Source of the DNA: Dromaius novaehollandiae
Taxonomy: Eukaryota; Chordata; Aves; Casuariiformes; Dromaiidae
NCBI RefSeq assembly: GCF_036370855.1
Contig: NC_088099.1
Coordinates: 18,691,501 to 18,755,500, forward strand
Direction: 5' to 3'
Length of the DNA: 64,000 nucleotides
Shown in pieces: positions 10,101 through 39,966 of this stretch. The translations under genes and the position numbers were made by a program. The notes below the pieces were generated by a model. That model made no database searches, was not told the origin of the DNA, and was given only the letters and a program-made list of their open reading frames with translations. How positions within the stretch are numbered: position 1 is the stretch's first letter; each line of letters begins with the position of its first letter.

Positions 10101-10560
10101 CTCATCCCAGTGTCCGAGTCCTGAATGCATCCTCCCCCTCCTGCGGGACCAGTTGCCGGGGCTCAGGGCCGAGGTAGTTGAGCTGGTGAACGTGGGGAGA
10201 AGTTCCCCAACATGCTGTGGGGAGGCCAAGTCCAGGCTGGCCCCCAGGCCCAGGGGAGCTGCTTTTAAGCCCAGGCAATAGCAGTGGGCACAATAGTGCC
10301 TGGCCCCAATCTGAGCTACAACCCCCACTGCACCACAGCCCTGCCTGCGCCTCGCCATGGCCCACTGATGTGGGTCCAGACCTGACATGCAGATGGACCT
10401 CCTGGCCTGGCCTTAGGCCTGCTTCGTCACCACAAACTTGCCCGATGCGCAGGGCTGGGGCTGCCCCACTGCTCCCCGCTGCCCATCTGCCTTGGAGTGG
10501 TGGGACAGGCCCCGGCAGCGAGGCCCAGCCCGGCCCCACGGGAAGCCCCTTCTACCGACA
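10100..10560 (-). repeat. GC-rich dispersed repeat, copy 1
   Basis: A GC-rich island in AT-rich surroundings. Its reverse complement aligns in order with 55530-55950. Shared blocks include CCGGGCTGGGC, GGGGCAGCCCCAGC, a central GGGCCATGGC-AGGC-GGGCTG, and GTAGCTCAG/CGCAGCTCAG. Long open frames on both strands here reflect lack of AT-rich stops and not genes. The family is not identified. Confidence 0.6.
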
Positions 10561-18194: not shown

Positions 18195-18929
18195 CACAGG
18201 TGTACAGTGATAAGACAAAACGCAGAGACCAAGGCTGCCTCAAGAGAAATTATGATTAGATACATAGAAAAATTTGTTCACAATGAGAGTGGTCAGTCAG
18301 TGGGACAGATTATTCATGCTGTGGAATCTCCATCCTTGGAATTATTCAAAACTCAACAGGACCAGGCCCTGAACAACCCAGCCTAAGTTAGCCCTGCTAA
18401 CTGAGCAGTAGGCTGAACTAGATGACTGCCAGACATCCTTTCCAATCTAAATTGTTCTGTGAATCTATGACCTTTGGAGGTCATTTAGTTCAACTCTCTA
18501 CTCAAAGCAAAGATAAAAGATCAAATACTACCCTAGATATACCATAGATAATATGTAATTGCAGTCACCTGACTTCTTATCAACATATATCTATTGCTGC
18601 ACTTTGATGATCCTGATGAATCATCCTAATGAATGAATCGACTAGACAATTTCTGAGAAATAGGGAGTGAGTTTCAAAGAAAAGCCACTTGTTAAATATA
18701 GAGAAGAGTTTTAGCAGCACCAGCCCACACACTGGAGGGAATGAATCTCTTTTGGTGTCTAATGGCAAAAGGGGAAGTCACTCACCACAGAGGAGGAGGA
18801 GAGGCATGCCTGAAGGTCCTAGGAGCACCGGACGTCCCTTGAGCTCAAATGTGCTAAGTCTTTTAAAACATTTCCAGGAACCAAAGGTGGCTGGAACTGT
18901 CACTGCCAGCCATGGAGGAACCACCAGCA

Positions 18930-19617
18930 GGCAGTTATCTGCCAAGCCATTCTGGGGGTCCTGGTGGGCAGTGGGCTAAGTGCAAGTCCACAGTGCACAC
19001 TGGCAGCAAGGAAGGCTAACAGCATTCTAGGAGGCATCAACAACAGTGCAGCTGGTAGATCCAAGGTGATTTTTCCCCTTCACTTGGCATTCATTACACC
19101 AAATCTGGACCACTAAATCCAGCTTTGCTTCTCTCTTTCCCCCAGTATAAGAAAGATACTGATAAACTTGAGTAAGTTCAGGCGAAGGCCACCAAGATGG
19201 TTGGGTGCTGCAGTACCAGAACTGCAAGGAGAGGGTGATGGAACAGGGCTTGTTCAGCCTGGCTTGAGGAGGTCCTACTAGCAGCCTTCCAATACACAAG
19301 AGGATGTTACCAAGAAGAGGAAGCCAGGCTCTTTGCAGAGGTGCATGGTGGGAGAACAAAAGACAAGGGTCATATATTGCAACAACAAGCTTCCAACTGA
19401 ATATAAGGGAAAAAAATTACTATGAGAAAAATTAAGCACTGGAATAAGTTGCTCAAAGAGGTTGTGGAATCTTCATCCTTGGAGGTTTTCAAGACCTGGC
19501 TGGACAAAGCCATCAGGCAACTGCTCTGAATCTGATGCTGATCCTGCTTTGAGCAAGAGGTTGGACTTGACCTCTTGAGGTCTCTTCCAGCCTGAACTAT
19601 TCTCTGATTCTATGAAT
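18930..19617 (+). mobile_element. CR1 LINE 3'-end fragment (sense)
   Basis: Shows the CR1 ORF2 end (GGGGGTCCTGGTGGGCAGTG, AAGGCTAACAGCATTCTAGG) and the 3' UTR (GTTGTGGAATCTTCATCCTT, GAGGTTTTCAAGACCTGGCT). The tail is TTCCAGCCTGAACTATTCT followed by GATTCTATGAA. It is 5'-truncated and not coding. It lies about 400 bp beyond the PKS 3' end. Confidence 0.88.
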
Positions 19618-20034
19618 AAAGCCTATCTCTCCCCATCCATTTGATCCTGATATGTTGTCCTTATGACTTAAGTCTTCGCTCTATAATGAAGCAAGCAAGT
19701 CTTGTCTTGTTTCATTAACTGGTACCCTTCCCTCCCAGCCAATTTCTGTGCTATCCTGTATTAGTGTAGGACTGGACAGTCCAGGCACTGGAGAATACAG
19801 CCAGAGTTGCAGCAGACATCTGGGAGTGAATGGTGTAATTAGGTATAAAATGGAGTAACACTACAAGGGCCTGTTCGCATTTTAATAGACTACAGACAGT
19901 TTCCTTCAGTATCTTTGGTAGAAAGTCTGTATTTTCTCACTTGAGTAAAATAAGGGCAGTTGTTAAAATCAGGAAAATTTAAACTTGGAAAGTGGAAGAG
20001 GGACACAAAATTAAAATAAGACAAAGGTTTAGGT
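19618..20034. other. Short intergenic stretch between CR1 and the PKS 3' end
   Basis: Nothing recognised; its upper end holds the probable downstream polyadenylation element of the PKS gene. Confidence 0.5.
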
Positions 20035-20054
20035 TTTGTTTTTGAAATTTCTCG

Positions 20055-20060
20055 TTTATT
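20055..20060 (-). terminator. Likely polyadenylation signal of the PKS gene
   Basis: AATAAA on the minus strand, about 630 nt after the PKS stop codon, followed by a T/GT-rich stretch at about 20000-20045 typical of the downstream element. The predicted 3' UTR (about 20035-20689) is AT-rich and holds no reading frame of note. ATTAAA variants a little closer to the stop are alternatives. Confidence 0.45.
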
Positions 20061-20689
20061 CGGTCTTTAGTAAAAGAAGGTTAATTAAACACAAAGTTGT
20101 TTTACTGCTTGCTTTTCCACTGAGTAATTTTTAATATTTTTGCAGACATAACATATAGAAAAATTAAGTTTTAATTTTTGAGAAGAAACCTCTAAAATTC
20201 ACAGCATATAGAAAAGTCTTTCAAAAGATGTCTATATTTATACACATAAGACAATAGACAAAAAAGTTATATTAAGAATATAACAACAAAAAATTGTTAT
20301 ATCATGCTGCTTCACACATACACTCGTCATGTAGAACTGCAATCACATCATTTTCATCAACACTTTAAAATGGTAAAAAATACAATGTACATTTAACATA
20401 CAAATATACAAAATTAAAATGTATATGTATTAGTCTACTTATTTTGAGTTAAAAAATATTGAAAAATGAAAGTAAAAAATAATGAAAGTAACATGTCAAA
20501 CAGTTCACTGAAAGTAACAAACTTGCTGCAATAGCAGAAGAACCTAGTATGGGCTTTTCTGGGGTAACAGAGAGGAGCACATCTAGCATCACCAGATATT
20601 CTACCCAGACTTTGCAATGAGATATTCTGAGATACCAGAAAAGGTCTAGTTATCTGAAGAGTTACATAATTCCTGAGTGAGGAAGACTC

Positions 20690-23600
20690 CTATAACCAGC
20701 TCCCATGTTCTGCACTTTTGATTGCATAATTTTCTTTTTCAGATATTCCATTTGCATTGGCTGTTTCTTCTAAAACTACTACTAAACTTGACAGAGTTGT
20801 GTGAGGCTCAAGCAGTTTCAAAAGAGGTATGTCCACCTTTCTTTCTTCAAAGATACGGTTCTGAATTGTCATAGCTAACATAGAGTCTATGCCCAATGAC
20901 AAAAGTGTTGTATTCATGGTTAATTCATTTGGGTTTGTTCTGGTGAGGTCACTCACCAGTGAGGTGATATACTTTTCAGGTTTCATTAAAGAAGCATCCC
21001 GGGCTTGAGAGTCCTCAGATACTTCAAGCTTGGTACTGAATTCTTCTGACATAAGTGATATGAAGCGACTTTTGAGTGACATAATCCGAGAAAGAACATG
21101 ATGAAGTAAAGTTTGAAAATTTAATTTGATGATAGCTTGCTGAGGGTTATTCATAAGTAAGCTCTTTCTGAGATACTCATGAATTTCATGCACTTGCAGA
21201 ATATCTATGCCCCTGGATCCCAGAATGTTCTGAATCCTGTTTTGATTGAGCAGAATGCCAATGTTCAAAGCACCCCAGTTAATGGATTGGCCTGAAAGCC
21301 CACAGTTCCTTCTGTAGTGGCAGAAGACATCCAGGAAAGAGTTTGCAGCTGCATAGTTTGCTTGTGTGGAATTTCCCAGAAAAGAAGTAACAGAGGAGTA
21401 GCACACAAAGTAGTCAAGCTCTTGGCCTCTGGTAACCTGGTGAAGATTTATGACCCCCGCCACTTTTGGGCTTAGCACTTTCTGAAAGTCAGCCAAGTTC
21501 AGAACTTCAAGACGGCCGTCGTGTAAAGCTACAGCACTTTGAAATACACCTTTGATTGGACTCCCTGAAAAGATTTGCACTATAGACTGGAAAGCTTTCT
21601 CAACCTCCTTGGTTGAAGTAACATCACACTGCACAAACACTACTCTGCTCCCTTTATACTGCTGCTGCAAAGCCTTGAGCTCTTCTTGCTTCTCATTGCT
21701 TGGAATTTTCCTGGACAGTATTGCAATACACCCACCTCCATTCTGGGCTATGAATTTCACAGTTTCAAAGCCAAGTCCAGTAAGGCCCCCTACTACTATG
21801 TAAACAGCATTCTGTTTAAACATTTTCTTCTTGGGTTCATACAACGGTATTTCTGAAACCATGGTGATGTCCCTCCTCTGCCTTCTCAGTACAGCCAGTG
21901 GGATAGATTTGCAGGCAAAATAAGACATCTCAGAGTTCACCCTTTCAAAGTTTTCAGTGTGCTGAAAAACAAAACCTGACAGACTTTTAAACCGTTTCAT
22001 ATCCATTGAACTGATCCATGCATGCACAGTCTTTTGCGATTCCTTTAGAGATGCTTTCTGGAAAATGCTGCTGAGGGTAAGGATATGAAAGCAGATATTT
22101 TCATGATCAGTTCCAATGGCATTTTGGATACATTCAGACTGATTGCCACGTACTATCACCACATCTCTAAGAAAGTACATGTGGGCCAGATCTTCCTGAG
22201 AAAGTCCATGTACTGGAGGAAGAACAACAAGGGCATTGCATAAGTTTATATATTGGAACTTATCAGGAGTGGGCCTTGCAAGTACTGTTCTCCAACCCAT
22301 CTCTGCTGCTGCCACAGAAAGAATGTGGCACAAAACCGATGATGGCTCTGTAGAAATAATACCTAATGTTCTTCCATTTTTCCTCTTGGGTAACCTCTGA
22401 TTTAATATTTCCCATGCAATTATAAAGTATGACAAGCAAGGGACATTTTGAAAGCATGGAAATTTTTTTACATTGAAACAAACTGTCTGTGGAATCCGAA
22501 TTTCAGATGATGCAGCAGCTGGATAACAGGAAACCACATGGTCTCCCACTTTAACTTTCTTCACATCAGTACCTATTGCTGTTACTGTGCCACTGAAATC
22601 AAGGGCTAAAAGTCCATATTTGTCTACTGTTTGTGAATTCCAGTACAGTGCATTACCAAAGTTACGACTAGAAACACTAATAGGAAAATAATCTTCTGAG
22701 TGAAGACATATTTTATCCACTTGAATTTCAATGCTCTGTTTTTCAAGCTCAGTAACAGCTCTGGTGGATACTTCAGCAGATAAGTCTTTTGCTGTGTATG
22801 GATCAGAAGTGTACAAAGTGAATGTTTTTGATTTCTGGAGAGATCTTATGGGTTGACTAGAATCTGCATCAATAAAAGGTGTGCGTCTGATTTCAGACAT
22901 GTAAATTCTTCCCTGGCTGATCCAGACTTCTGGATAGTCCATACCTTTGTATTTGACAAGAACATCTGCTAATGCTGAGATGTCCAGGGAACTGGAAGAG
23001 CTAAGGTCAATCATCTGAAATGTGACTTCGGGAACTTCAAGGACACAAGTCCTGGTCATGCCACACAAAGCAAACCCACTGTTAATGTGGTCTACATTTC
23101 TTCCTGTTGTTCTGTAGGTGATCACTGTGATTGAACAGTGAGATGTTTTCTCTCTTACTGCCACAATAACTTGACGATAGGCCTCACAACACTTTGCCAG
23201 CTGGTCCACCATTTTGCTTGGGAACTCTTCATTTAATTTTTGAATTCCCCACAGGAACAGAATTTCATCATAATCCTCAACCTCTGTTTTCATTTTATTC
23301 TCTGTGTGGACTTCCAAGCAGGTTTCCCAGTCTTCGTACATAACATACTTGGACTCATGATGCAAATATTTTTTGAGCTGCTCAGCTATACCAAATTTGT
23401 CAGCAAACACTAGGACTCTGGGCATTGCCGCCAGGTGTCCAATTGTCTGTGAAGGAGAGATTTCTTTCCACTTGTTCTCAAACATGAACTCATTTTCTCT
23501 GGAAGATGCTTGCTTCATGAAAGTGATGGCAACACGCTTAAGTTCAGCCAAAATGGAGCCACGTTTGTCCATAAAGCATCCACAGACCTCTAAGCAGTTC

Positions 23601-26248
23601 CCAATGGATTTGCTTGTTCTCATATAGATCATCATTTCTTCCTCCAGTGGTCGGAGTACTACCAGGCTGCCTATCCCTGATGGAAAGCCTGCTCTGGACT
23701 GAAAGGTCTTCGAAGTCATGACAGCTGTCATCTGCAGAAAACAGTCTAGCAGCACTGGATGGATATAGTAGTTGTACATCTCTCCAACAGTCTGTTTGTT
23801 CACCTTTATGCTTGTTATAGCTTCCTTTAGTTCCTGGCAATAATGCACATCACTGAGCTGCCTGAATATGGAGCCATACTGAAAGCCAATCTGAGACAGT
23901 GCTTCATAAACCTCCTCTGTGCTAACCACTGACCTGCACCTTTGATAGATGTCTTGGAAGGAGATGGTGCTTTCTTCCACTACAGCTTCGGGCACCTTTG
24001 TAACTTGGCCTGCAGCAAAAAGTGCATTGGAGGGAGAGAGTATTTCAAAGGCTGTCATTGTTTTTTGTGGACTCAGTTTGATATGCAAAACTTGGGAACT
24101 CTGGTTGAGAACACATGGTGCAGAAAAACTGATACTCATCTGGCAAATGCCCAGCGGAACTTTAGGCCTTGAACTGCTCATCACAGAGGCCAGACCGAGC
24201 TCCACGTAAAAAGCACCAGGGACTAAAGCCAGACCATTGTTCTTGTGTTCGTATAAGTAGGGTGTTGTATCCTGAGATAGCAGGCAGCTAAACTGCATGC
24301 TGTCACTGTTCGTACTGTAAACCAAAGGATGGCTGGAGCCGACATCTCTTTGGTTTGCTTGTTGATGAATGCCCAGAAAGTTCATCAGTTTTTTGCGATC
24401 AAATTGATACCGTGGAATAGCCACTGGAATACTTTGATATCCATTATAAAAGTGTTGCCAGTTGGGATTATATCCCAGTTCAAACAAATTTCCTAACAGG
24501 GTAAGGAGTGTCTGATACTCTGCACCGGTCTGCAAAGATGAGAACACCTTTGTGCCCTTTCCTAGAATTTCTATTATGTTTCTTTGCAATGCCCGGTGAG
24601 GACCAATTTCCACAAACACCACATTTTCCTTGTTTCTAGCTGCTGTTTCTATGGCTTGAGTGAAAGCAACAGGCTCACGAGTATGCCGGGCCCAGAATTT
24701 GCCCTGAGTGAAGTCATTTTCAGACGCAGCCATCCCAGTTAGTGTTGAAATCACTTCGATTTCCCCCTTCTGTTTTTCTAAATGCTGTATGTTCTCTTCC
24801 AATTCCCTGAGTATCTCATCCATGCTGGGGCTGTGGTACGCAGCTGGGACATTTAAAACATGAAGAAAGATGTTTCTGCTACTGAAATTCTGAGCTAAAT
24901 CTTTGTGGACAGCATCCACAGAGTCTGAATCTCCAGACAAGGTGCAGGAAACAGGGCTGTTGAAAGCGGCAATGCACACCTTTCCCGAGTACGGATGCAG
25001 ACTTTCAGCAATCTCTTTAACGGGAATGTTTCCAACCACCAGCATTCTCCCCCCGACAACCTTTGCCTGCAGCCTGCTCCGGTGATAAATCACTTTGACT
25101 GCATCTGCCAGGGAAAGGTACCCAGCAAAGTGGGCAGCAGCAACTTCCCCTACTGAGTGGCCAACAACAGTGACTGGTTTAATGCCCCAGTATTTCAGAA
25201 GAGAAGCTAGGGCAACCTGCAGGGTGAAAAGCAAGGGCTGGGTGAGCTCTGGACTGGAGAAGTCCTTTGGGCTGCAGTCTTTTGCTGGCAGGAGACTGAT
25301 GGGAGTGTGTCTCTGAAAGAGCGCCTCTATTTCCTTACACTTCTCTCTGAACACTGGCTCTGAGCTCAGCAGTGTCTCGCAGAACTCCTTCAGCTTTACA
25401 CCGTTGCCACAGAACACATACACCAGCTCTGGTGCCACCTTCGACAGGGCATGTTCAGTGTTCACGGCTGACATAATCTCTTGCTGCAAGTGCTGGAGAG
25501 AGTTTGTGACAAATGCTTTTCGGTATTTGTAGTTGGCATTGCTTCTTCTGCAGGCAGATGTATAAGCCAGACTTGGGAGGGTCACAGAGTTGCTTGTGCT
25601 CAGCTGCTCAGCTGTATCTGCCATTGTCATCTGGAGGGACTTACTTGATGCTGCAGCCAGCAGAATTAATTCAATGGGCCTCTTAAAGGCAGGAAGAGGC
25701 TCTGATTGCTTAACCTGCCTGACGACAACGTGGGCATTGGTTCCTCCAAATCCAAAGCAGTTGACGCCAGCTACTCTTCCATACTCGCCCAGCTCTTCCC
25801 AGGGTTCTACAGTTGTGGGAATTGCAAGGTTTAATTTCTCTGCATCAATGCTACTCATCTCCTTTGAGTAGTGCAAAGATGGAACAATCTTTCCATGATG
25901 CATCATCAGAAGCACTTTGATTAACCCTGCTGCCCCAGCAGCTGATTCAGCATGGCCAATATTTCCTTTCACTGAACCAATTTTCAGAACGGAAACTTGT
26001 GAAGACCTCTTTTTACAAACAACACTACTTAGGCTTTCAGCTTCTGTGGGATCTCCGGCAACAGTTCCTGTACCATGTGCTTCAATGTACTGCACAATTG
26101 ATGGATCAACATGAGTTTGATAAATGCTGCGTAGCAACTTCTCTTGCTCTATTTGAGATGGTCTTGTGATCGGAGTTATGGACCTACCATTCTGATTTAC
26201 TGCACTGATTCTTATAACACCCCAGATTTTGTTGTAGTCTTCCTTTGC
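20690..26248 (-). CDS. PKS: PKS coding exon 7: rest of KS plus AT, DH, ER-like, KR and ACP
   Basis: This single 5559-nt terminal exon encodes 1852 residues and carries most of the enzyme. The acceptor is ATATGAAACAG/GCAAAG; the apparent ATG just upstream belongs to the intron. In order it shows EAHGTGT and GNIGHAE (KS histidines), GFGGTNAHVVV, GHSVGE (AT serine), H-x3-G-x4-P and HPVLLDCFLQ (DH), GDHVVSCYP (ER substrate lobe), VGGLTGLG and QANYAAANSF (KR), and LGIDSML (ACP). The reading frame is open throughout, with no frameshift or premature stop, so the gene appears functional. A huge intronless 3' exon after a multi-exon KS start is unusual next to vertebrate FAS genes, which are heavily split. 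Confidence 0.97.
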   Translation of the reverse strand, partial: AKEDYNKIWGVIRISAVNQNGRSITPITRPSQIEQEKLLRSIYQTHVDPSIVQYIEAHGTGTVAGDPTEAESLSSVVCKKRSSQVSVLKIGSVKGNIGHAESAAGAAGLIKVLLMMHHGKIVPSLHYSKEMSSIDAEKLNLAIPTTVEPWEELGEYGRVAGVNCFGFGGTNAHVVVRQVKQSEPLPAFKRPIELILLAAASSKSLQMTMADTAEQLSTSNSVTLPSLAYTSACRRSNANYKYRKAFVTNSLQHLQQEIMSAVNTEHALSKVAPELVYVFCGNGVKLKEFCETLLSSEPVFREKCKEIEALFQRHTPISLLPAKDCSPKDFSSPELTQPLLFTLQVALASLLKYWGIKPVTVVGHSVGEVAAAHFAGYLSLADAVKVIYHRSRLQAKVVGGRMLVVGNIPVKEIAESLHPYSGKVCIAAFNSPVSCTLSGDSDSVDAVHKDLAQNFSSRNIFLHVLNVPAAYHSPSMDEILRELEENIQHLEKQKGEIEVISTLTGMAASENDFTQGKFWARHTREPVAFTQAIETAARNKENVVFVEIGPHRALQRNIIEILGKGTKVFSSLQTGAEYQTLLTLLGNLFELGYNPNWQHFYNGYQSIPVAIPRYQFDRKKLMNFLGIHQQANQRDVGSSHPLVYSTNSDSMQFSCLLSQDTTPYLYEHKNNGLALVPGAFYVELGLASVMSSSRPKVPLGICQMSISFSAPCVLNQSSQVLHIKLSPQKTMTAFEILSPSNALFAAGQVTKVPEAVVEESTISFQDIYQRCRSVVSTEEVYEALSQIGFQYGSIFRQLSDVHYCQELKEAITSIKVNKQTVGEMYNYYIHPVLLDCFLQMTAVMTSKTFQSRAGFPSGIGSLVVLRPLEEEMMIYMRTSKSIGNCLEVCGCFMDKRGSILAELKRVAITFMKQASSRENEFMFENKWKEISPSQTIGHLAAMPRVLVFADKFGIAEQLKKYLHHESKYVMYEDWETCLEVHTENKMKTEVEDYDEILFLWGIQKLNEEFPSKMVDQLAKCCEAYRQVIVAVREKTSHCSITVITYRTTGRNVDHINSGFALCGMTRTCVLEVPEVTFQMIDLSSSSSLDISALADVLVKYKGMDYPEVWISQGRIYMSEIRRTPFIDADSSQPIRSLQKSKTFTLYTSDPYTAKDLSAEVSTRAVTELEKQSIEIQVDKICLHSEDYFPISVSSRNFGNALYWNSQTVDKYGLLALDFSGTVTAIGTDVKKVKVGDHVVSCYPAAASSEIRIPQTVCFNVKKFPCFQNVPCLSYFIIAWEILNQRLPKRKNGRTLGIISTEPSSVLCHILSVAAAEMGWRTVLARPTPDKFQYINLCNALVVLPPVHGLSQEDLAHMYFLRDVVIVRGNQSECIQNAIGTDHENICFHILTLSSIFQKASLKESQKTVHAWISSMDMKRFKSLSGFVFQHTENFERVNSEMSYFACKSIPLAVLRRQRRDITMVSEIPLYEPKKKMFKQNAVYIVVGGLTGLGFETVKFIAQNGGGCIAILSRKIPSNEKQEELKALQQQYKGSRVVFVQCDVTSTKEVEKAFQSIVQIFSGSPIKGVFQSAVALHDGRLEVLNLADFQKVLSPKVAGVINLHQVTRGQELDYFVCYSSVTSFLGNSTQANYAAANSFLDVFCHYRRNCGLSGQSINWGALNIGILLNQNRIQNILGSRGIDILQVHEIHEYLRKSLLMNNPQQAIIKLNFQTLLHHVLSRIMSLKSRFISLMSEEFSTKLEVSEDSQARDASLMKPEKYITSLVSDLTRTNPNELTMNTTLLSLGIDSMLAMTIQNRIFEERKVDIPLLKLLEPHTTLSSLVVVLEETANANGISEKENYAIKSAEHGSWL

Positions 26249-29200
26249 CTGTTTCATATAAAGAAAGCAATATCTTTAATAATCCTGTGCTTTTTCTATA
26301 TAAGGAAAAAAAAACAAAACCAAGAACAGACAGAGTATAATATTAACTTTTAAATGCATGATTCCCATATTAGGAGAAGTGCATAAATGCCTTATTAATA
26401 CTAGGCTTGAATTAGAAGAGTTTTATTCTAGAGGAATTTACTAGAATTGAACATACAAAACCTAGATAAAGGTTTTAAGCTACTTCACAAACAATCTTAC
26501 CTTTTTCAGTGGTTTCAGGAAAACAACACCACAGCCTTCTCCCCTTCCATAGCCATCTGCCCTTTTGGAGAATGGTTTGCTTATTCCCTCTGGAGAGATC
26601 ATTTTTGCTTTACTGAGAGACACAAAGATGCGGGGATCTATTATGCAGTTCACACCACCACAAATGGCTGCCTCACAATCTCCTGCAGTAAAATAGAAAC
26701 ATACTCATATTGAGATGTCCAAGACATGATAGACAGAAATATTTTAATTATATATAACAGTTGATTGAAAATGCAGATATTTCAGAGAGATTGTATTAAT
26801 GATATTGAAAATTATTTGAGATATTCATATTTTCAAGATTGGAACCAATTACTGAAACAGGTCTTTGAAAGAGCATCCAACGCAGCTCTCTCGAACTACA
26901 TCAGGATGTGATTGAGGAAGTAACATTATTCCTTATAACGAAAGGTTTCTTTCTTCTGTAGAAATGGTGGGTATTTCTGACACATTGGAACTTATCAGTT
27001 CCCTATGGTGAAGCTGAGGGTACAAAAAGCTTTATTTAATTCACTTCAGTAATGCTGAAGTATAAAGTTAAAGTATAGGTCTTGCTAGCTGTGATATGAA
27101 TCAAACCCTAGAAAAACACTGAAATCTTAATATGCTAGCTACCTCTCACAGTATCAATCCTAATTTCTTTGCCTAGCATCTCTTCAGTCCCATTACCTGC
27201 TTTAATTGCTCGCAAGGCATAGTGCAAAGCAAAAAGAAATGACGAACATGCAGTGTCAATAGCCAGCGATGGTCCAGTCAGATTAAATGTGAATGAGACC
27301 CTGTTAGCAGCTATGCTCATTGCTGTTCCAGTGCCATCATAATGGTTTATTTGACTCACTGCTCTGCTTGTTATGATTTCATAATCTCGATTCATAAGAC
27401 CTGTAAAAACATCAAACATGTCACATTAACCTGAGAGAACAAAAGGGATTTACAGCTCTAAACCTGATAGAGTGCTTTGTTTTTCTGTTTTAATACTGAA
27501 CTACACATCATCAGTGCTCCTATGGTGAAACTTTGTTTCTACTCAAGTCAAAGGTGAAACTCCCAGCAATTTCCACCAGACCCAACTTAAACAAACATTC
27601 CCGACACTTGAAATTTGCCCCTGGTCAGTAAATGACAAGCCTTATCTGCTGGCTTAGCTAGTTGTGTGATGCAGTTAAGCTATGTATAGACTATTTAGAC
27701 AGTTGTATCTCAGGAGTGAGTTGATTTTGTTTAGCTAAGGTAATACACATTAAGAAGTTACAACAAGGGTAGCTGAGATATAAATGCACAGGACGAGCTC
27801 TAATTCCTCAGACGTTCCAAGTAGAATGTCACAGTGTAGGCTACATCAAACACTTTTTATTATCTTTGCTTTGCTTGCTGTGATCCAGTGAGCAAGACAG
27901 AAATCGAAAAGAAGAATGGGGCCTGTCAGAAGAGTTGTCCCCTCTCTGTGAGAACACATGTGCTTGAAATTCAGCAGATCTCCGATTCCACAGGCAGGTA
28001 TGGAAAATGCAGTACATCCATTCAGAGAGCAAGGAGTAATCTCCTTTGCGTAACATGAGCACGTCTCAGACTAAAAGGTAATCTAAACGGTTTGCCATTA
28101 TCATTATCTCAATCAAACTAACCCAGTAAACTCCTCTTAAAGTAAACACATATTGTACTAGAAAAATGTACTGTTTTTCTAGCTCCTTAACAAAATAAGC
28201 AAATGGACAAATGCTTATTTGGACTGGACTTAGGTAGCATATTGATATCTACATGAGGATTTCTGCTGGTTTAAAAGGGACTTAAAAGCCCACACTAACT
28301 GAACCAATACTATTATACTGGGAATTATCTAAGCGTAGATCTGGCTTGAGAGTATCATTTCTGGACAGTGTTGGGTAGACAGTTTGATTGTTTTGTGCTT
28401 CAGCTTCAGTGCCTGGAGACACTAAAAAGAGCAACCAGGAGAGGACAGGTTAATAGCATAATGAACTTCTAGAATAACCTACTAATCTTTACCTAAAATA
28501 ACCAACACTGTCATAGCACAGTAGCCTTAAGTTCTCTAATGCTAGAAACATGTGAAGTTTATGAAGGAGTGTTCCATTCTTGGTGAGGTTAAAATGGACA
28601 TTAAAATGGACAAAATTGCTATCTTACCAATGAAAACACCTGTTTTGGTGCCATTGATGGCTTCCACAGGGACTCCTGCATCCTCCAGTGCTTTGTAGGT
28701 GCATTCTACCAGCAACTTCTGTTGCGGATCCATGCGTTCAGCTTCCAGATCATTAATTCCAAAGAGGTAGTTGTCAAATGAATTGAATCTAAAATACACC
28801 AACCAGAAAATAGTTCAATATATATATATATAATATGCACTTACTTCTAGACTCAAAGTCCACATTTTTTGCAATTTCATGACAAGCAAAGCAATAACTG
28901 GTATTTAGGCCACAGTTCCCATTTGTGAAGTTCAGAAGCAAATGTTTATAGGCCAAGGATGTTCTATTTCCCCCACAAGATGAGCACTTTTACTAGCTAT
29001 TTGGTATTGCAGAGTTACAAGCCCAATCCTAGAAATTGTTATTCACATGATTAGCCCATGAATTTCAACTAGACTTCTCACATTATGAAAATTTGCACAA
29101 TGAGACTCCCTCTACTGTAATGTGGTTTTAGTCAAAATGTTTTAAACAAATATTGTCTTCTAAATAAATTTAAGGCAATACTGACCAATGCCTTTGCAAT

Positions 29201-32200
29201 GTAAAATCAATAAGTAGGGGATCAGCTCAGATGCTTCCAAGAGAATAATAAATTTAAAATATTTGTGTGTGAATGTGTATGTATACTTATAAAAAAATCT
29301 CAAAAATAGGTCTACACTTAGAAATGATCAAGCCCAGACTTAATCATGTATCCCAAGCTCAGATCTGTATGGCCTTGTGTCATTTCTTGGTTTTAATGGG
29401 AAACTAGACATCTAACATGGGATTAATTACTTTAGTAATTTTGGGTCTTACGATTCAAACCTGTAAAGTGTTATTCTTATGAGGCAATAAGATGATTACT
29501 TCCGTGCATGTTAACTTTTCACTTGAATAAAGGTTTACAGCATGAGGATTTAAAATAAATGTGAATTTAAAATCAAATACATTTACGTTGATTTTGTAGT
29601 GTTGATTTGCTACTCTTAGCATTAATAATAGCCCCTGTACAACTATAACCATATTTCCGAGCTAATTTGACATGACATATCAGGACACAGGTGAAGGGAT
29701 ACATATTTTGCATCTCCACAGTTTCTCTTTACATTAGTATCTTTACCCAATGTTTACACATACATAATCCCCCATTATTATAAAGAAATACTCAAATAAA
29801 GAGCAAGAATAAGGGAAAAGTTAGTTAGTTTTTAACAAATGACAGTATGAGCCCAGAGAAAAGCAGGATTACTAGTGTATTATTACTAGTTCAGGCTTAC
29901 AGGCAAGTATAGCACTGAAAAAAAGTGTAAGATCCCCTTCTTGACCATCTAGCAAACACAGACTTTCTTACTTTGTCTCTAAATTGTCACAGCCTCATTT
30001 GAATCACAGCTATTCAGCCCCACAAGCACAGGATTGGGTCCTGAGATCCAACAAAGCAGATCAACCTTCAAGCTGAAACTGGAGGAAGCTTACCAGGCAG
30101 TTCTTATGGCTCCGAGTCCATACTCCGCCACCTTCTTCTGCTGTCCATAAGTGGGCAGTATGAATTGTTTGGCAGGCTGTAACCCACCTCAGTCTGTCAT
30201 ATACCTGCATATATAACACATGCACCTATGCACACCCCAAGTGCAGACATCCCTATCATGTGGCAGGTGAACATCTCAACACATGATGAGTATGTATATA
30301 CATCCTGGATTATGTAATCAAAGATCAGATATGTTCCTAGCCATGTACATATGTGCCTAATGTAGCTGGCAACTGAATGTGCTAACCGATGTCATGTAAA
30401 AGGAATTCCTGCAATTTGATGCATGTTCAGTCATGTGAGATAAAAGAAACCCTGTTCAGTATAAAGTCTCCATTTGGCTTGGTGTCTGTGAAAGGCTGGA
30501 CACATTACTGTAAAAACAAAAAAAATCTATGGCACAGCACTGTACACACTTACTCATTGAGAAGAGCAGCTCGTGTCGTACATATTTTTCCTGGCTTGTT
30601 ATCATCTGGATCATACCACTCTTTGGTATTAAATCTCTCTGGCGGTATTTCTACTGTGCAGTTTTTGCCTTCTTCCAGGATTTTCCAGAAGTTGTCAATT
30701 CCTTCACCTGTTGCATGAATATTTTAAAGATTAAATTATGTGTTCCCTCCCATGCATATTCGGAAATGCACGTTCATTTATAAGGAACTTTCACATATAA
30801 ATCTAGTTTGCTAAAGGAGAATCACCAGAGATGAAGAAATAATAATTCTTCAGTGAGAGGGAAATCGAAATGAATGATTGCTCCTTTCACTTCATGTTTA
30901 AAAGCAAAAGGAACCCCACAAAATCCTGAATCTTTGTAAACTCTTGAGAAGTTCTAAGATGATTTTCCAAACAAATAAAATAACTCTAGCAAATTGGCCA
31001 TCAAAGGCATTCCTATCTGCAGTACAAACAAATGTAAAAGCTTAGTCACCCCACCTTATCACCATTCCAGAGGCTATCTACAGCAAAGGGCATACTGTGC
31101 TGTCCCCATTTCCCTACCATGTCACTGCACAGTGTGGTCAGGTCCCTCTGTATCTGTGCAGCACCACTCCTCAGGAAGCTCCACTGGCAGCAAAGGAGCA
31201 TCTCTGGACATTAACTCTTTGAAGACAGACTGAGCTTACAAATACCAGGAAAATAGCAGAGACATTATCCCTTGGCCCTAACACAGCTCAGCGCTAGATG
31301 GGGATCTCAACTCGAACATAAAAGTATGTGGATACTCAACACTGACAAAGCCCAACATACTCCTGGGCTGTAAGAAAGCCTGCCCTTACCGCTTGAGATG
31401 CAGGCACTGAGGGTATGTCTACACTAATACATAAAACAGGCCTGGGCCCACTCCTTGGCCCTAAGGCCAAACACAGCATCCACACAGTGGCCCACATTTC
31501 TCCTCCCCCCAGCTTCCACTTCCCCCAAAATACACAGTGGCCTCACCCACTCTCACTCTGGGAACAGTCCCTTGCAGGTATGCACCTGTGGTGTGCCTGA
31601 GCACTGTCTGGGAGCGCTCAAACGGAGCTGGGCCAAAGTTGGGCTGAGGGACGTGCTAACGGTCAGTAACAGTGGTCACAGGAGAGCATTCCCACCTAAG
31701 CCCTTGCCACATTTAGTCCATCATCGTAGGCATAGCCACAGACACTAGCTAGACATTGGTAGTTAACAGATCCCGTCACTCAACAATACCAGAGATTCTT
31801 TTAAGGCCAGGTAAGAAATGCAGTTCTGAGGACGCACAGTGACAGATGAGAACACATGTGTTCACGTGTGTTACTTCGTGAATAGATAATTAAGAACAAT
31901 GTAACTGAAGAGATTCTCTGTTAATGTGATGTATGGACCAACAGAGTTTGCACCAAATTAGCATTTAATGCTGGGGTAAGAGATTCTACATATTTTATAG
32001 CACTTTATTAGATTTCAGAACCATTAATTTGTACTCATAATTAATTTACGGTCCACGTAGTTACTGGTGTATATATATAAACCTATTGAATCTGGGACAA
32101 AGTGAAGCCAGGAGCTGAAATGTGGTGAGGGCAAGGAAGAAAACAAGGAAGGATGAGACTAGCACTGCGGCCTTTAGGGCAGGGACAGAACTGTATTCTA

Positions 32201-33078
32201 CTGCCTGAATTATTTCTGGATTTTTTTTAACCAGTCTCTATCTAATGTAAAGTGTATTGAAGGTTTGTGAGCAGGAGCCAGCACCTAGAACTCCCTCCAC
32301 CTATCTAAACATCTCCATCCATCTAATCTCAGAAGATAAAATCTACTGTCACTTTTTATAGGGCCTAATTGTAAGTAAGATCATAAATATGGGACTAGTG
32401 TAATAGGAACTGTTGCCTTTTATTATAATACACGGTATCAGGGTTTTTTTGAGATCAACTTCCCATCTCATATAAAAGGCAGTATTGAAGTGTATATTTA
32501 TAAAAGGCAAAATCTGACTTTAATCATTCTAGAGAGACAGCTGTTTTTATCTAGCTCTGCTCTCTTCTAGGACCTTTTGAAGGGACTACTATAATAAATC
32601 AGGAAGCTTCCTACCAGTAAAAGCCAACCTATTTATATTAGAGGTAGAGCTGGTGCTATTGACAGGCCCTCTGTGTGTCCAGTCTCTATGGATGCATGGT
32701 CCTGCAGCTGTGCATGATCAGCTGGCCAGTGTGCATGCAGCAAGCTCAAATCATCCCAGACACATTTGGTTCATTTGTGTGAGCTGCATGTGTGGAGTTC
32801 AATGCCCTGTGCATAGCCAGCAAAATTTGTCAGCTGACAAATTTAAACCACCATAGGGTGACCTTTTTAGAAATATTCTAGAAGTAGGAAAGCAAGGGCT
32901 TCTACAATAGCAAGGGAGAAAGGCATTGTTTTACTTCACATCCAAATTAATAAGTAACTGTGCTTTTCATTATTTACTCAGTATTCTGCTTTGCATTTAC
33001 CCAAAACTTACCTCCAGGAAAGTTGCATCCTATTCCAACAATAGCAATTTCATCTCCAGTCTCCATCTCCATTTTCAT
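20690..33078 (-). CDS. PKS: Animal FAS-like type I polyketide synthase, spliced from six coding exons
   Basis: Spliced CDS: 33078-33012, 30707-30554, 28788-28628, 27400-27197, 26682-26501, 26248-20690, giving 2108 residues (about 230 kDa) and ending in TAG. Every junction is GT-AG and phases agree. Domains by rough residue: KS 10-430 (Cys179 in TACSS, His314 in HGTGT, His355 in GNIGHAE); AT 530-840 (Ser621 in GHSVGE, His728); DH 895-1170 (His924 in HxxxGxxxxP, Asp1091 in HPVLLDCFLQ); a non-catalytic linker 1180-1400; ER-like 1430-1650; KR 1735-1925 (VGGLTGLG, Lys1851, Ser1875, Tyr1888); ACP 2015-2085 (Ser2045 in GIDS). Known family: cytosolic iterative synthases that extend acyl chains with malonyl-CoA. 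The ER has lost its NADPH loop and no thioesterase follows the ACP, so I infer an unreduced polyene product released by another enzyme. The closest known relative by architecture is the budgerigar feather-pigment PKS; the actual product here is unknown. Confidence 0.95.
26501..26682 (-). CDS. PKS: PKS coding exon 6: ketosynthase core
   Basis: This 182-nt exon lies between acceptor TTTTACTGCAG/GAGATTG and donor AAAAAG/GTAAG. It encodes 60 codons after two bases finishing the split Gly codon. Visible ketosynthase landmarks are CEAAICGGVN, the FSKRADGYGRGEGC segment and VVFLKPL. It ends in phase 0, matching the phase-0 start of the large terminal exon. Confidence 0.94.
27197..27400 (-). CDS. PKS: PKS coding exon 5: ketosynthase catalytic cysteine
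   Basis: This 204-nt exon lies between acceptor TTTTTACAG/GTCTTATG and donor AAAGCAG/GTAATG. It encodes 67 whole codons plus split codons at both ends. It opens LMNRDYE and holds the active site DTACSSF with Cys179. This is the nucleophile that receives the acyl chain in the condensing reaction. The long in-frame extension beyond the donor is intron and is not coding. Confidence 0.95.
28628..28788 (-). CDS. PKS: PKS coding exon 4: ketosynthase segment with the MDPQQK motif
   Basis: This 161-nt exon lies between acceptor TATTTTAG/ATTC and donor TTCATTG/GTAAG. One base completes the exon 3 Glu codon, 53 codons follow, and a G starts the next Gly codon. The encoded stretch includes FDNYLFGINDLEAERMDPQQK and ends KTGVFI. 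It matches the ketosynthase region where the dimer-interface MDPQQ motif sits, about 80 residues before the catalytic cysteine. Confidence 0.94.
30554..30707 (-). CDS. PKS: PKS coding exon 3: ketosynthase N-terminal region
   Basis: This 154-nt exon has no long open reading frame around it and is easily missed. The acceptor is CAACAG/GTGAAGG and the donor is AATGA/GTAAGT. It begins with two bases completing the Gly codon from exon 2, then 50 codons, then GA of a Glu codon finished in exon 4. The protein begins EGIDNFWKILEEGKNC and contains IPPERFN and WYDPDDNKPGK, the standard animal PKS/FAS ketosynthase segment between FPGG and the MDPQQ motif. Without it the phases of exons 2 and 4 do not match, which independently supports it. 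Confidence 0.93.
33012..33078 (-). CDS. PKS: PKS coding exon 2 (first coding exon): N-terminus of the ketosynthase
   Basis: The exon runs from 33120 (acceptor TTTCAG) to 33012 (donor GGAG/GTAAGT); translation starts at ATG 33078. It encodes 22 residues plus one base, ending in the typical ketosynthase opening EIAIVGIGCNFPG. The upstream 42 nt of the exon have no in-frame stop and no other ATG. The first ATG has A at -3. The third codon is also ATG, with A at -3 and G at +4, so either could initiate. A CAGCAG sequence at the acceptor (33123-33118) allows 3-nt NAGNAG variation in the 5' UTR only. Confidence 0.88.
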
Positions 33079-34919
33079 GTTTTTCTTGAGCTTCACAATA
33101 CAGGTATAAATGTCCGCCTGCTGAAACAATTATGCATTTATCGTTAGATAAATATTAGTTTAAAAACTGAACTTCCGACAAACACACATACTTATACAAA
33201 GTTTCATTAATCTTGAATGATCTATCGGTTGTGATGAGAAATGACACTCCCCAAAGGTAAGCAGAGCTGCAAGCTCTTTTTCTCTTTGTCTCTACTTTTA
33301 GAGGAAAAATCCCCAACTAATCCCCTAAACTCCCTTATTGACAGGCACTACCTTTTTACTGTTTCACTTCTCCTAATCCTGTCACCAGTTGATCTGCTCT
33401 TGAGCCTTTCCCTTAGATCCCCGTTTTCAGGGGTCTAAGAGATTCCAGGGATCTAAGATCCCCTCAGATCAGTCCTGCTTCACTGTTTGGGTGCAGCAGT
33501 GAACTGTGTGTGGGTCACAGAGGCACACTTTCAACTCTATCACCTCTAGCCTCTCCATGAAACAGAGCTCCCAAACAGTCTCCCCAAATTACCGGCTAAA
33601 CAGGCAACCGACAATCAAATACTGGAAGGAACAGAAGTTGCTTCTTCTCCACCCTGGAAAAGTGAAAGCAAATATTGTTCAGGGCTCTCCTTGGCTGGAT
33701 CCCAAGGCTGCATAGCTTTTGTCTAAATCAGCTACTTTTATAGTCAGAGGTCAACCCCTATCGACCTCAATCAAAGCCACCAACAGTTACAAGGTGTCTG
33801 TCAAGAGGACAGCACACAGCCTCCAAATAGCACCAAGACAGCCGTATGAATAACTGACCATTCAGCTCATTTGCAGTTTCAAAGGGGAAAACTTTAAGTT
33901 TTGAAGCAACTCAAAATGCAAATGTGTGAAATTTTTTAGCAAATGAAAGAGCAAAGAAAAATTTGTTTTGGATCCAGTGAAATATCTCAGCATAGATTCA
34001 GAGATTTTAAAGCTCATGGTTTTTTTAATTCTGTAAAGGGAAGCTGTGAGATAAAAATCAGTTCAATTCAATTAATAGGAATTCACTAAGAGGCCCACCT
34101 CAGAGCCCTTCAGTCCTCCCGGACTTACATCAGCCCACAAAGAGAAGGAGACTCATGTTGGAAGGGATTCTTTGGGACGCTTGGCAATGAGGGCAGATTC
34201 TCATCTAAGTTCTACCACAGGAGGTCCCAAAGAGCCCTCTTGAGTTACTCACTGACCACAGTGAAGTAACTCCACGCTGAGCCTGGTATTGCAGAGATGA
34301 AGCTGTTTTACAACCCCAGAAATCCTACAGGGTTATGATTTCTAGGGGGTTATTTCTGAAATATGAAATGAAAAAACACCATTCAGATTCATATGCTGAA
34401 AATTTTACTTCACAGTTCCATTAACTAATACGGAGAAAGTTACTGGGCCACCTGGCAAAAATAAGGAGACCAGAATCTGGCTTTCTGGGAGTAAATTCTG
34501 TTTTCACCAGTAGTAATAAATAACGCTGTAATTATTTTCTTTTATTTCTTTCAAAATTGCCTCCAATTTGAAGACTGAAAATCCATTTGAAGAAGTCAGA
34601 AAGAAAAAACTTCATAAAAATCTGTAAATATGTTTGTGTTCTGGGATTTTCTCTTCCCAAAATGGCCTCAGATTTTAATTTCTATTTCTACTGATTTCTA
34701 CTCTAATTTCTATTTAATTTCGCTTTCAGAATTTAATTTCATTGCTAACCTAATGTTGCAAACGTCAACATAGATACTCTATCACAAAGGTACTTTCAAA
34801 CATTGTTCTGAAGTTATCTCTTAAATAGCATATAATAGAAAAATAAGAGTGTTACAAATTTAACATCAAATATGTCTACAGCATCTACAGAATTATGAAG
34901 TCAGATAAGTAACTCTTAC

Positions 34920-34954
34920 CTTATATCATCCCCAGTAGGGTGTAGTAGTATGCT
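34920..34954 (-). other. PKS: PKS exon 1, non-coding (predicted 5' UTR)
   Basis: A near-perfect donor (ATAAG/GTAAGAG) ends this predicted exon at 34920. An initiator-like TCA at 34956-34954 lies about 28 nt downstream of a TATA box, giving an exon of about 35 nt. It contains a two-codon upstream reading frame, ATG-ATA-TAA (34929-34921). No coding continuation into exon 2 is possible in that frame. The exon is inferred from signals alone; transcript data would be decisive. Confidence 0.55.
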
Positions 34955-34973
34955 GAGTCTTTCTTTGGGAGTC

Positions 34974-34982
34974 CTTTATATA
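34974..34982 (-). promoter_or_regulatory. TATA box of the PKS promoter
   Basis: On the minus strand this reads TATATAAAG. It is correctly spaced (about 28 nt) from an initiator-like TCA and about 55 nt before a strong splice donor. TATA-driven vertebrate genes are often tissue-restricted and strongly inducible, which would suit a pigment or epithelial synthase; that last point is inference. Confidence 0.6.
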
Positions 34983-38000: not shown

Positions 38001-39910
38001 GGGCAGATTTGTATTCATTTCCTCAAGATGAAGTCTGACCTAAAAAAATTGAGAGACTGTCCTAGAGGTTATCGCATCAACTTTTGGGTTCTTCGACTTT
38101 TGCACTGTAGAAAAGAAAAGCCTTCAGTAGATTGGGGATGCAGTATTTTTACTTCTGAGACCTACTGGACACAATGAGCAGAATGTATTGAGCACAACGT
38201 GTCTAGCACATTCAGAAACCATCACCTAGATTTGAAGGCAGAGCAAATCTGACACTTATGCACATAAAAAGAAGACGCACACAGAAAAATGCAGAAATAT
38301 AGTAGTCCTACAGTGGCTAATGCTTCCAGAAAACAAAAACGAAAAAGTTCTTGTCTTTGGCTGATTACAGCTCCTCCTCCTCCTGATTCCCTTCAGCTAT
38401 ATGCAATAGATAAACTCTGAAATCTGAAGGTCACAGGGTTGCATTAATAGAAATAGCCATATTAGAGTAAAAACGGTCCTTCAGATTGCATGGGTTTTGT
38501 TCATTAAAGAGCTCTGTTGCTCCAGGTCACAGCAGCAGTTCCATTATGTAGCTTCCCCAACCATATGAAATTAATATAGCTAATAACAGTGCAATATGAC
38601 AGCACTGAGCTAATCATGGGGAATGGGAATATGAAGCATTAGAAACTGAGCAGCAGAGAAAAACTTAGGAAAGGATCTTTGCCTTATGTCTTATACATCT
38701 ATTGTTTCCCAATTCTTGAAAGAATGGGATCAGCATCCTCCCTGAGCTAAGGATACTGAAACTGAAGACATTATTCCAAGACTGCACAAGGAATAGGATC
38801 TATCTCATTTAACTTGAGCTATCTAAATGTTAGGCATGTCGCCTATGCTAGCTGTCTAGGCTTCATCTTCTAGGAAAAGAGACAAAAAGCATGCAGAGGG
38901 AAATTCAGACCAGTTTATATGACTAAAATGAGGTCAGATTAATCCACTTTCACTGATAAACATAGTAGTACAATAATTTCCTTACACATTCTCATTTATA
39001 CATGGAAGGATGTTCTTTGTACCACAGAAATGTTCTGAGGTCCCCAAAAAGCTGATTATCTAACAAGATCACCAGGTTCCTCTTCAGAATCACGGCTTCT
39101 CAGAAGGAAGTACCACATCCTGTCAAAATCCCCAGTTTTCTCTATTCTTGGCACACAACTTTGCATTTAGCTATATTAAAATGTATCCCTGAAATTCTAC
39201 TATTGAGTAATAGCATCTGGAACTCAGGCTTACACAGACATTTTTAAACAGTTAATTTTTTCAAAAATAGAATGTAATTTTGCATAAATAGTTAAACTTT
39301 AAAAAAAAATAAGTAAGGCTAGCCTTGAACCATTGGGAAGAGCCATGTGTAGCCTTTACTGTAAATGCAAAGAGGCATTTTCCTTAATATTCAACACCAG
39401 ATAGTTTATATGTTTTTCCCAGTATTAAATCATTGCATAACTGAAGTTTTTAATGCAAAAAATGAATTGCATAAATTCAAATCTGACCTGTAATCTGCAA
39501 AGTAAAACATTCACAGTGAAAGTACAGCAGAAGCTCTCTATTTGACAGTTAACAAATTGTAACCTGAACTAACAGCTCAGATTAAAACTGTTTCTTTGGG
39601 AAATGCTTTTTTTCTTCCTGGTTCCTATACACCTGTCAGCAACCCTCACCTCAAAATCCTGTGTCAGGCTTTGCAGCCTGGAGGGCTGTTACAGGATTAC
39701 AGCCAGCAAACAAGCGCTCACAGCAATTGCTGTGTCCTGTCAATTCATACAGATCTTATGCATGTGGTGAGACAATCGTCTCTTTTTGCTTAAATACACA
39801 TATTAACTACTATAGGGAGTTGCTAAGTGGCCAAATGTACAGATTGCTTTACCAATCAATAAAATACTTTACTAGTTTAGGAAACTTCACCTACATTCAC
39901 ACGAAGACAT

Positions 39911-39914
<4 letters not shown>
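35100..39914. other. Intergenic DNA upstream of the PKS gene
   Basis: No gene recognised on either strand; composition is AT-rich with short open frames only. It contains the TTTA-rich tract at 35950-36010. Distal regulatory elements of the PKS could lie here but nothing in the sequence singles one out. Confidence 0.55.
35950..36010. repeat. TTTA repeat followed by A/T-rich complement
   Basis: Five TTTA/TTAT units pass directly into AATAAA/TTAAA-like units, giving an imperfect inverted repeat of low complexity. Confidence 0.75.

Positions 39915-39962
<48 letters not shown>
39915..39962. repeat. AC microsatellite, 24 units
   Basis: An uninterrupted run of 24 AC dinucleotides (48 bp). Long and pure, hence probably polymorphic. 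Confidence 0.98.

Positions 39963-39966
<4 letters not shown>

What the first reader, a model, noticed from the sequence alone, without database searches (positions are those of the whole stretch)
20690..34982. Complete, apparently functional animal polyketide synthase gene
All coding exons, promoter signals and a poly(A) signal are present. Phases match through six splice junctions and the 2108-residue frame is open. Catalytic residues of KS, AT, DH, KR and ACP are in place. Animal FAS-like PKSs are few, and their products are mostly unknown outside parrots, some fish, echinoderms and molluscs.
Basis: partly seen in the sequence, partly recalled or inferred. Interest (0 to 1): 0.85.

Follow-up and report, generated by a model that had tools for sequence, protein, structure and literature searches.

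The report
Intact palaeognath-bird polyketide synthase gene
This is a complete, apparently working copy, in a bird related to kiwis and tinamous, of a polyketide synthase gene already known from birds, reptiles, marsupials, amphibians and fish; it is ordinary as a gene, though what it makes in this bird is untested.

Summary
On the minus strand, six coding exons join through five in-phase GT-AG introns (six junctions with the 5'UTR) into a 2108-codon open frame. The longest frame, 1861 codons, compares with at most 224 in 20 shuffles. Catalytic residues of KS, AT, DH, KR and ACP are present. The protein is 93% identical to a kiwi protein, groups with kiwi and tinamous and shows no sign of decay. 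It is the apparently single-copy orthologue of the bird PKS known as MuPKS, GgPKS1 and ApPKS.

'FAS-like PKS' is not supported: its KS scores best with bacterial PKSs, and this genome's own FAS behaves differently; a published survey found no such enzyme in vertebrates.

Likely mechanism: iterative malonyl condensation with KR and DH but no enoyl reduction. The ER cofactor motif is absent in 84 of 84 aligned sequences, window included. That predicts C14-C18 polyenes, released in trans because no thioesterase is present. Expression and product are untested. Known gene, low novelty; the modest addition is the breadth of the ER loss and the conserved loop in its place.

The parts
34920..34960 (-). 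putative non-coding first exon (3' end at +34920, donor GTAAG); its 5' end, the TSS, is assumed. It holds a 2-codon upstream ORF (ATG ATA TAA)
   Evidence: sequence inspection; no transcript support
34976..34982 (-). TATA-like site upstream of the non-coding exon
   Evidence: consensus match only
33012..33117 (-). coding exon 1 (5'UTR plus residues 1-22; first in-frame ATG at +33078)
30554..30707 (-). coding exon 2
   Evidence: GT-AG, in phase
28628..28788 (-). coding exon 3
   Evidence: GT-AG, in phase
27197..27400 (-). coding exon 4; KS active-site Cys179 codon at 27246-27248
26501..26682 (-). coding exon 5
   Evidence: GT-AG, in phase
20690..26248 (-). coding exon 6 (last), residues 257-2108 plus stop
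25727..26248 (-). KS C-terminal half (residues 257-430; His314, His355)
   Evidence: Pfam; residues
24560..25423 (-). AT domain (residues 532-819; Ser621, Arg646 = residue 644 of kakapo and kiwi rows, His728)
   Evidence: Pfam
23528..24331 (-). DH domain (residues 896-1163; His924, Asp1091)
   Evidence: Pfam
22877..23503 (-). structural (pseudo) KR subdomain, residues 1172-1380
21821..22768 (-). ER-like domain without NADPH-binding motif, residues 1417-1732
   Evidence: ADH_N below cut-off; fold match to enoyl reductases; motif absent in 84 of 84 rows
22319..22369 (-). conserved loop region at the place of the dinucleotide-binding motif (residues 1550-1566, Ser1560 in 84 of 84 rows)
21266..21808 (-). 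catalytic KR domain (residues 1737-1917; Lys1851, Ser1875, Tyr1888, Asn1892)
   Evidence: Pfam
20744..20977 (-). ACP (residues 2014-2091; Ser2045); no thioesterase follows
   Evidence: Pfam
20055..20060 (-). AATAAA, possible poly(A) signal
   Evidence: only AATAAA in +18501..20690; consensus match only

Best explanation
The gene is the intact, apparently single-copy palaeognath orthologue of the vertebrate iterative type I polyketide synthase (budgerigar MuPKS, chicken GgPKS1, duck ApPKS; more distantly fish pks1). Its layout is KS-AT-DH-psiKR-psiER-KR-ACP. Shown here: the intact frame, the catalytic residues, grouping with other bird PKSs, conservation, absence of a canonical ER cofactor motif and absence of a thioesterase. 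Inferred: the AT loads acetyl and malonyl units, the KS condenses them iteratively, the KR and DH turn each beta-keto group into a double bond, and no enoyl reduction follows. The product would be a linear conjugated polyene of about C14-C18, as reported for MuPKS and for chicken GgPKS1 in yeast, released by a separate enzyme. In a ratite the likely use is not feather colour but whatever older role keeps the gene in many vertebrate groups. The confidence given is for identity and intactness; I put the polyene product at about 0.8.
For: Gene model. Domains. 93% identity to kiwi over 100% and 79-85% to the other birds with full coverage. Tree: window with kiwi and tinamous (SH-aLRT 100), tree follows species. 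Catalytic residues; Arg646, residue 644 in the kakapo row, is Arg in 84 of 84. 5 private changes at 792 bird-invariant columns, 22nd (tied) of 35; in a second set of 13 amniotes 10 of 1005, tied second lowest. One intact single-exon KR in the 1.47-Gb own genome; the other two KR hits lie on contig C99 in a split-exon FAS. ER motif absent in 84 of 84, while a comparable pattern for the KR is found in 79 of 84. Literature: PMC6334511 sections 5 and 10; PMC7036892 passages; PMC6171735 passage on R644W.
Against: No transcript or enzyme data. The species is inferred, not named. MuPKS, GgPKS1 and ApPKS themselves were not in the alignment; other parrot, galliform and duck rows stood in for them. Copy number rests on one KR-profile search, which could miss a copy without a recognisable KR; the protein search of the genome did not complete. 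The private-change count favours species with close relatives in the set. PMC6334511 section 10 describes a partly conserved NADPH-binding domain in ApPKS, though it too thinks the ER may be inactive, and does not exclude a trans-acting ER. Model confidence for the ER-like region is low (mean pLDDT 50 and 60).
Confidence: 0.93

Rival explanations
1. [quoted passage not shown]
For: It is an animal type I KS-AT-DH-KR-ACP enzyme; EcPKS1 and FAS are among its significant matches. On the KS alone several bacterial PKSs, MAS (258 bits) among them, score no higher than FAS.
Against: KS bits: Pks13, CurL and DEBS 292-302, FAS 250-263, EcPKS1/2 217-218; this genome's own FAS KS gives FAS 541-555, EcPKS 317-324 and other PKSs at most 235, apart from a chain with several KS stretches at 341. 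The modifying region matches MAS-like PKS (E 1e-14) before insect FAS (2e-7) and EcPKS1 (1.6e-4). Lin 2024 found no AFPK in vertebrates; FEBS J 2018 puts bird PKSs apart from FAS.
Confidence: 0.03
2. It is an intact-looking but non-functional or recently silenced gene (relaxed constraint in ratites).
For: No expression data. The TATA and poly(A) matches are consensus hits only. The KS GHTES motif of kiwi reads GHAES here.
Against: Private changes at bird-invariant sites (5 of 792) are below the middle of 35 birds; catalytic residues are kept; the end branch (0.034) matches kiwi's (0.032).
Confidence: 0.05
3. It makes a reduced or otherwise different polyketide (for example through a trans-acting ER or a different chain length), unlike psittacofulvin-type polyenes.
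For: Chicken GgPKS1 also gave two metabolites of unknown structure (PMC7036892); fish pks1 products are unknown; no thioesterase and unknown partners.
Against: All 84 aligned rows lack the ER motif; DH and KR residues are intact; parrot and chicken enzymes gave polyenes in yeast.
Confidence: 0.2

Closest known systems
Budgerigar MuPKS / chicken GgPKS1 / duck ApPKS (avian type I iterative PKS)
   Same: Same orthologue group judged by other duck, parrot and grouse rows (80-83% identity); same length and layout; Arg at residue 644/646; ER thought inactive; no thioesterase
   Different: Palaeognath sequence; no known feather polyene use; product and tissue untested; the three named sequences were not themselves aligned
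Fish pks1 (medaka olpks, zebrafish wu:fc01d11), needed for otolith formation
   Same: KS-AT-DH-KR-ACP layout and six exons in medaka (PMC4604110 section 17); ER motif also absent in the sturgeon and paddlefish rows
   Different: About 54% identity to sturgeon/paddlefish rows; teleost sequences were not aligned here; ear role not shown in birds
Bacterial mycocerosic acid synthase (MAS)
   Same: Iterative single module without thioesterase (PMC6334511); DH-psiKR-ER-KR order; best fold match of the region between DH and KR
   Different: MAS has a working ER and builds methyl-branched chains (established knowledge, not tested); KS and AT only distantly similar
Animal fatty acid synthase and FAS-like PKS (EcPKS1/2)
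   Same: Type I multifunctional enzyme
   Different: Different KS lineage by score; FAS in this genome is split over many exons and lies on another contig

Membership tests
Vertebrate/avian iterative PKS (MuPKS-ApPKS orthologue group) | KS-AT-DH-(ER-like)-KR-ACP in one ~2100-aa chain, no TE | tested here: met
   the chain ends 63 residues after the ACP serine
Vertebrate/avian iterative PKS (MuPKS-ApPKS orthologue group) | Places among avian orthologues in a tree that follows species | tested here: met
   with kiwi and tinamous, SH-aLRT 100
Vertebrate/avian iterative PKS (MuPKS-ApPKS orthologue group) | Conserved AT arginine (R644 of MuPKS) | tested here: met
   Arg646; Arg in 84 of 84 rows; residue 644 in the kiwi, kakapo and Aythya rows; MuPKS itself not aligned
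Vertebrate/avian iterative PKS (MuPKS-ApPKS orthologue group) | ER-like domain lacking the canonical NADPH motif | tested here: met
Vertebrate/avian iterative PKS (MuPKS-ApPKS orthologue group) | Usually one gene copy per bird genome (two in chicken and quail; two in zebra finch) | tested here: met
   one intact PKS-type KR in 1.47 Gb by Pfam KR; a copy without a KR, or in withheld stretches, is not excluded
Vertebrate/avian iterative PKS (MuPKS-ApPKS orthologue group) | Makes conjugated polyenes | not testable with these tools
   needs heterologous expression
Animal FAS-like PKS (AFPK, EcPKS1 type) | KS closer to animal FAS than to other PKSs | tested here: not met
   30 non-FAS PKS sequences score above the best FAS
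Animal FAS-like PKS (AFPK, EcPKS1 type) | FAS-type modifying region | tested here: inconclusive
   Foldseek: MAS-like first, insect FAS rank 12, EcPKS1 rank 41; low-confidence model
Animal fatty acid synthase | C-terminal thioesterase and working ER | tested here: not met
   no TE after the ACP; no ER motif
Mycocerosic acid synthase | Active ER | tested here: not met
   judged from the absent cofactor motif only

The most novel reading that the evidence does not exclude
All vertebrate PKSs of this family are obligate polyene makers. The enoyl-reductase cofactor site was lost before the split of ray-finned fish and tetrapods and replaced by a conserved loop (GIIS-x-EP-x-SVLC, Ser invariant) that has a job of its own, for example as scaffold or docking surface for a releasing enzyme. 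Ear mineral seeding, parrot colour and the unknown ratite role would then share one chemistry.
Probability: 0.35. Interest if true: 0.6.

Novelty: already known. Interest (0 to 1): 0.2.

Why it matters
The gene itself adds one more clean orthologue. It is useful because palaeognaths are the sister group of all other birds. A polyene product from this enzyme would date the chemistry used by parrots to at least the bird ancestor and support the view that parrots changed mainly where the gene is expressed. It also supplies a defined start for asking what vertebrate PKSs do outside parrots and fish ears. The 'FAS-like' label, if kept, would mislead, since vertebrate PKSs form a separate lineage.

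Tried and rejected
Second gene in the window: 20 ORFs other than the PKS, chosen by length or codon score, were scanned with Pfam. None reached a cut-off; shorter exons were not scanned. The best was 4HBT_2 'thioesterase-like', E 0.054, at 39586-39984, running into an (AC)n repeat. About one such hit is expected from 20 queries, so the idea of a neighbouring releasing thioesterase is not supported. Rfam gathering search: 0 hits. tRNA scan: 0.

The ER-like region alone gave nothing better than E 0.01 by sequence in the PDB, so that assignment rests on fold and position. Two AlphaFold models were weak overall (mean pLDDT 50 and 60), with the Rossmann half better. The loop is conserved but not exceptionally: rank 41 of 300 windows of the ER-like domain, itself the least conserved domain.

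Decay test: no sign. A dN/dS test was not possible because no orthologous DNA was held. A KS tree with FAS and EcPKS1 was not built, for want of full sequences; bit scores were used instead. Of the 120 proteins listed, 37 were left out of the alignment used (outside 2030-2180 aa, or with X); no teleost or shark row is in it. Cooke 2017 and Lee 2019 were not held. In print: one search listed 20 of 443 loosely matching papers, none of the 20 with 'polyketide synthase'; one search gave 2 papers, on ferns and cyanobacteria. That is all that was searched for PKS in ratites.

Full report
What is there. The gene runs on the minus strand. Six coding exons (33012-33078, 30554-30707, 28628-28788, 27197-27400, 26501-26682, 20690-26248) join in phase through five GT-AG introns into 2108 codons plus TAG. 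A sixth junction lies in the 5' leader, whose first exon ends at +34920 and follows a TATA-like site at +34976. One AATAAA lies at +20055. These last signals are consensus matches only. The longest open frame is 1861 codons, almost all of it the last exon, against a maximum of 224 in 20 shuffles. Kiwi P0001 starts two codons further in, so the true start is uncertain by two codons.

What it is. Pfam gives KS, AT, DH, KR and ACP. The best relative is a kiwi (Apteryx mantelli) protein, 93% identical over its full length. Other birds with full coverage stand at 79-85%, turtles at 70-73%, a gharial at 70%, lizards at about 56-62%, marsupials at 55-58% and sturgeons and paddlefish at 54% (7984 hits among the 7988 candidates scored, best 120 listed). 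In a 26-row tree the window falls with kiwi and two tinamous (SH-aLRT 100) and outside kiwi plus tinamou (83); the tree follows the species. It lies in a 170-Mb contig of a 1.47-Gb assembly. In that assembly the KR family hits three places: this gene and two pieces on contig C99. C99 carries an animal fatty acid synthase in many exons: tblastn finds eight ordered pieces, and the joined KS pieces score 541-555 bits with solved FAS. So this is apparently the only PKS, which fits the report of mainly one copy in birds (PMC6334511 section 5).

Is it working? In an alignment of the window with 83 of the 120 listed proteins, the window has the catalytic residues Cys179, His314, His355; Ser621, His728; His924, Asp1091; Lys1851, Ser1875, Tyr1888, Asn1892; Ser2045. 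The other rows keep each of these in 77 to 83 of 83. Arg646 is residue 644 in the kiwi, kakapo and Aythya rows and is Arg in 84 of 84 rows; R644W in MuPKS is the basis of blue budgerigars (PMC6171735 passage). Among 35 birds the window has 5 private changes at 792 columns invariant in the rest, 22nd (tied), with a range of 0 to 20; in a set of 13 amniotes it has 10 of 1005 against 9 to 75 in the others. The measure favours rows with close kin in the set, but it gives no sign of decay. One difference from kiwi is GHTES to GHAES beside a KS histidine.

Against 'FAS-like'. The window's KS scores highest with bacterial PKSs (a chain with two KS matches 527, Pks13 302, CurL 300, DEBS 292-293), then FAS (250-263, best rank 31 of 151), then EcPKS1/2 (217-218). 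MAS itself scores 258 on the KS, level with FAS, so the KS alone does not tie the gene to MAS. The FAS KS from the same genome scores FAS 541-555, EcPKS 317-324, and other PKSs at most 235, apart from that same bacterial chain at 341. With the whole last exon as query, MAS scores 349, EcPKS1 250 and pig FAS 242. Lin 2024 (passages) reports no AFPK in vertebrates; Hojo 2015 (section 17 part 1 and passages) and FEBS J 2018 (section 5) separate vertebrate PKSs from FAS.

Verdict. A true observation of a known gene. The window sequence is a clean palaeognath orthologue. Its interest is in what the product does outside parrots, which sequence cannot settle. The original Cooke paper was not available to me; statements on it come from reviews and PMC6334511.

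Noticed in passing
window 22319-22369 (-): The ER-like domain's cofactor loop is replaced by a conserved GIIS-x-EP-x-SVLC-like sequence in the 84 aligned vertebrate rows, with Ser1560 invariant.
   Followed up: partly
P0069 (Sceloporus), P0075 (Anolis), P0079 (Pogona): These three lizard copies carry His or Ser in place of the KS active-site Cys, so squamates seem to keep condensation-dead paralogues beside intact ones; PMC4604110 Table 2 marks a similar Anolis copy (KS*).
   Followed up: no
window 39586-39984 (+): 133-aa open frame with a weak thioesterase-like (4HBT_2) match, E 0.054, running into an (AC)n repeat; probably chance.
   Followed up: partly
window 10001-11000: G+C-rich kilobase (61%) with several overlapping open frames; CpG observed/expected about 0.34 over 10001-11200; no known protein domain in the three frames scanned there.
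   Followed up: partly
window 34920-34935 (-): Two-codon upstream ORF (ATG ATA TAA) at the end of the putative non-coding exon, which might restrain translation.
   Followed up: no
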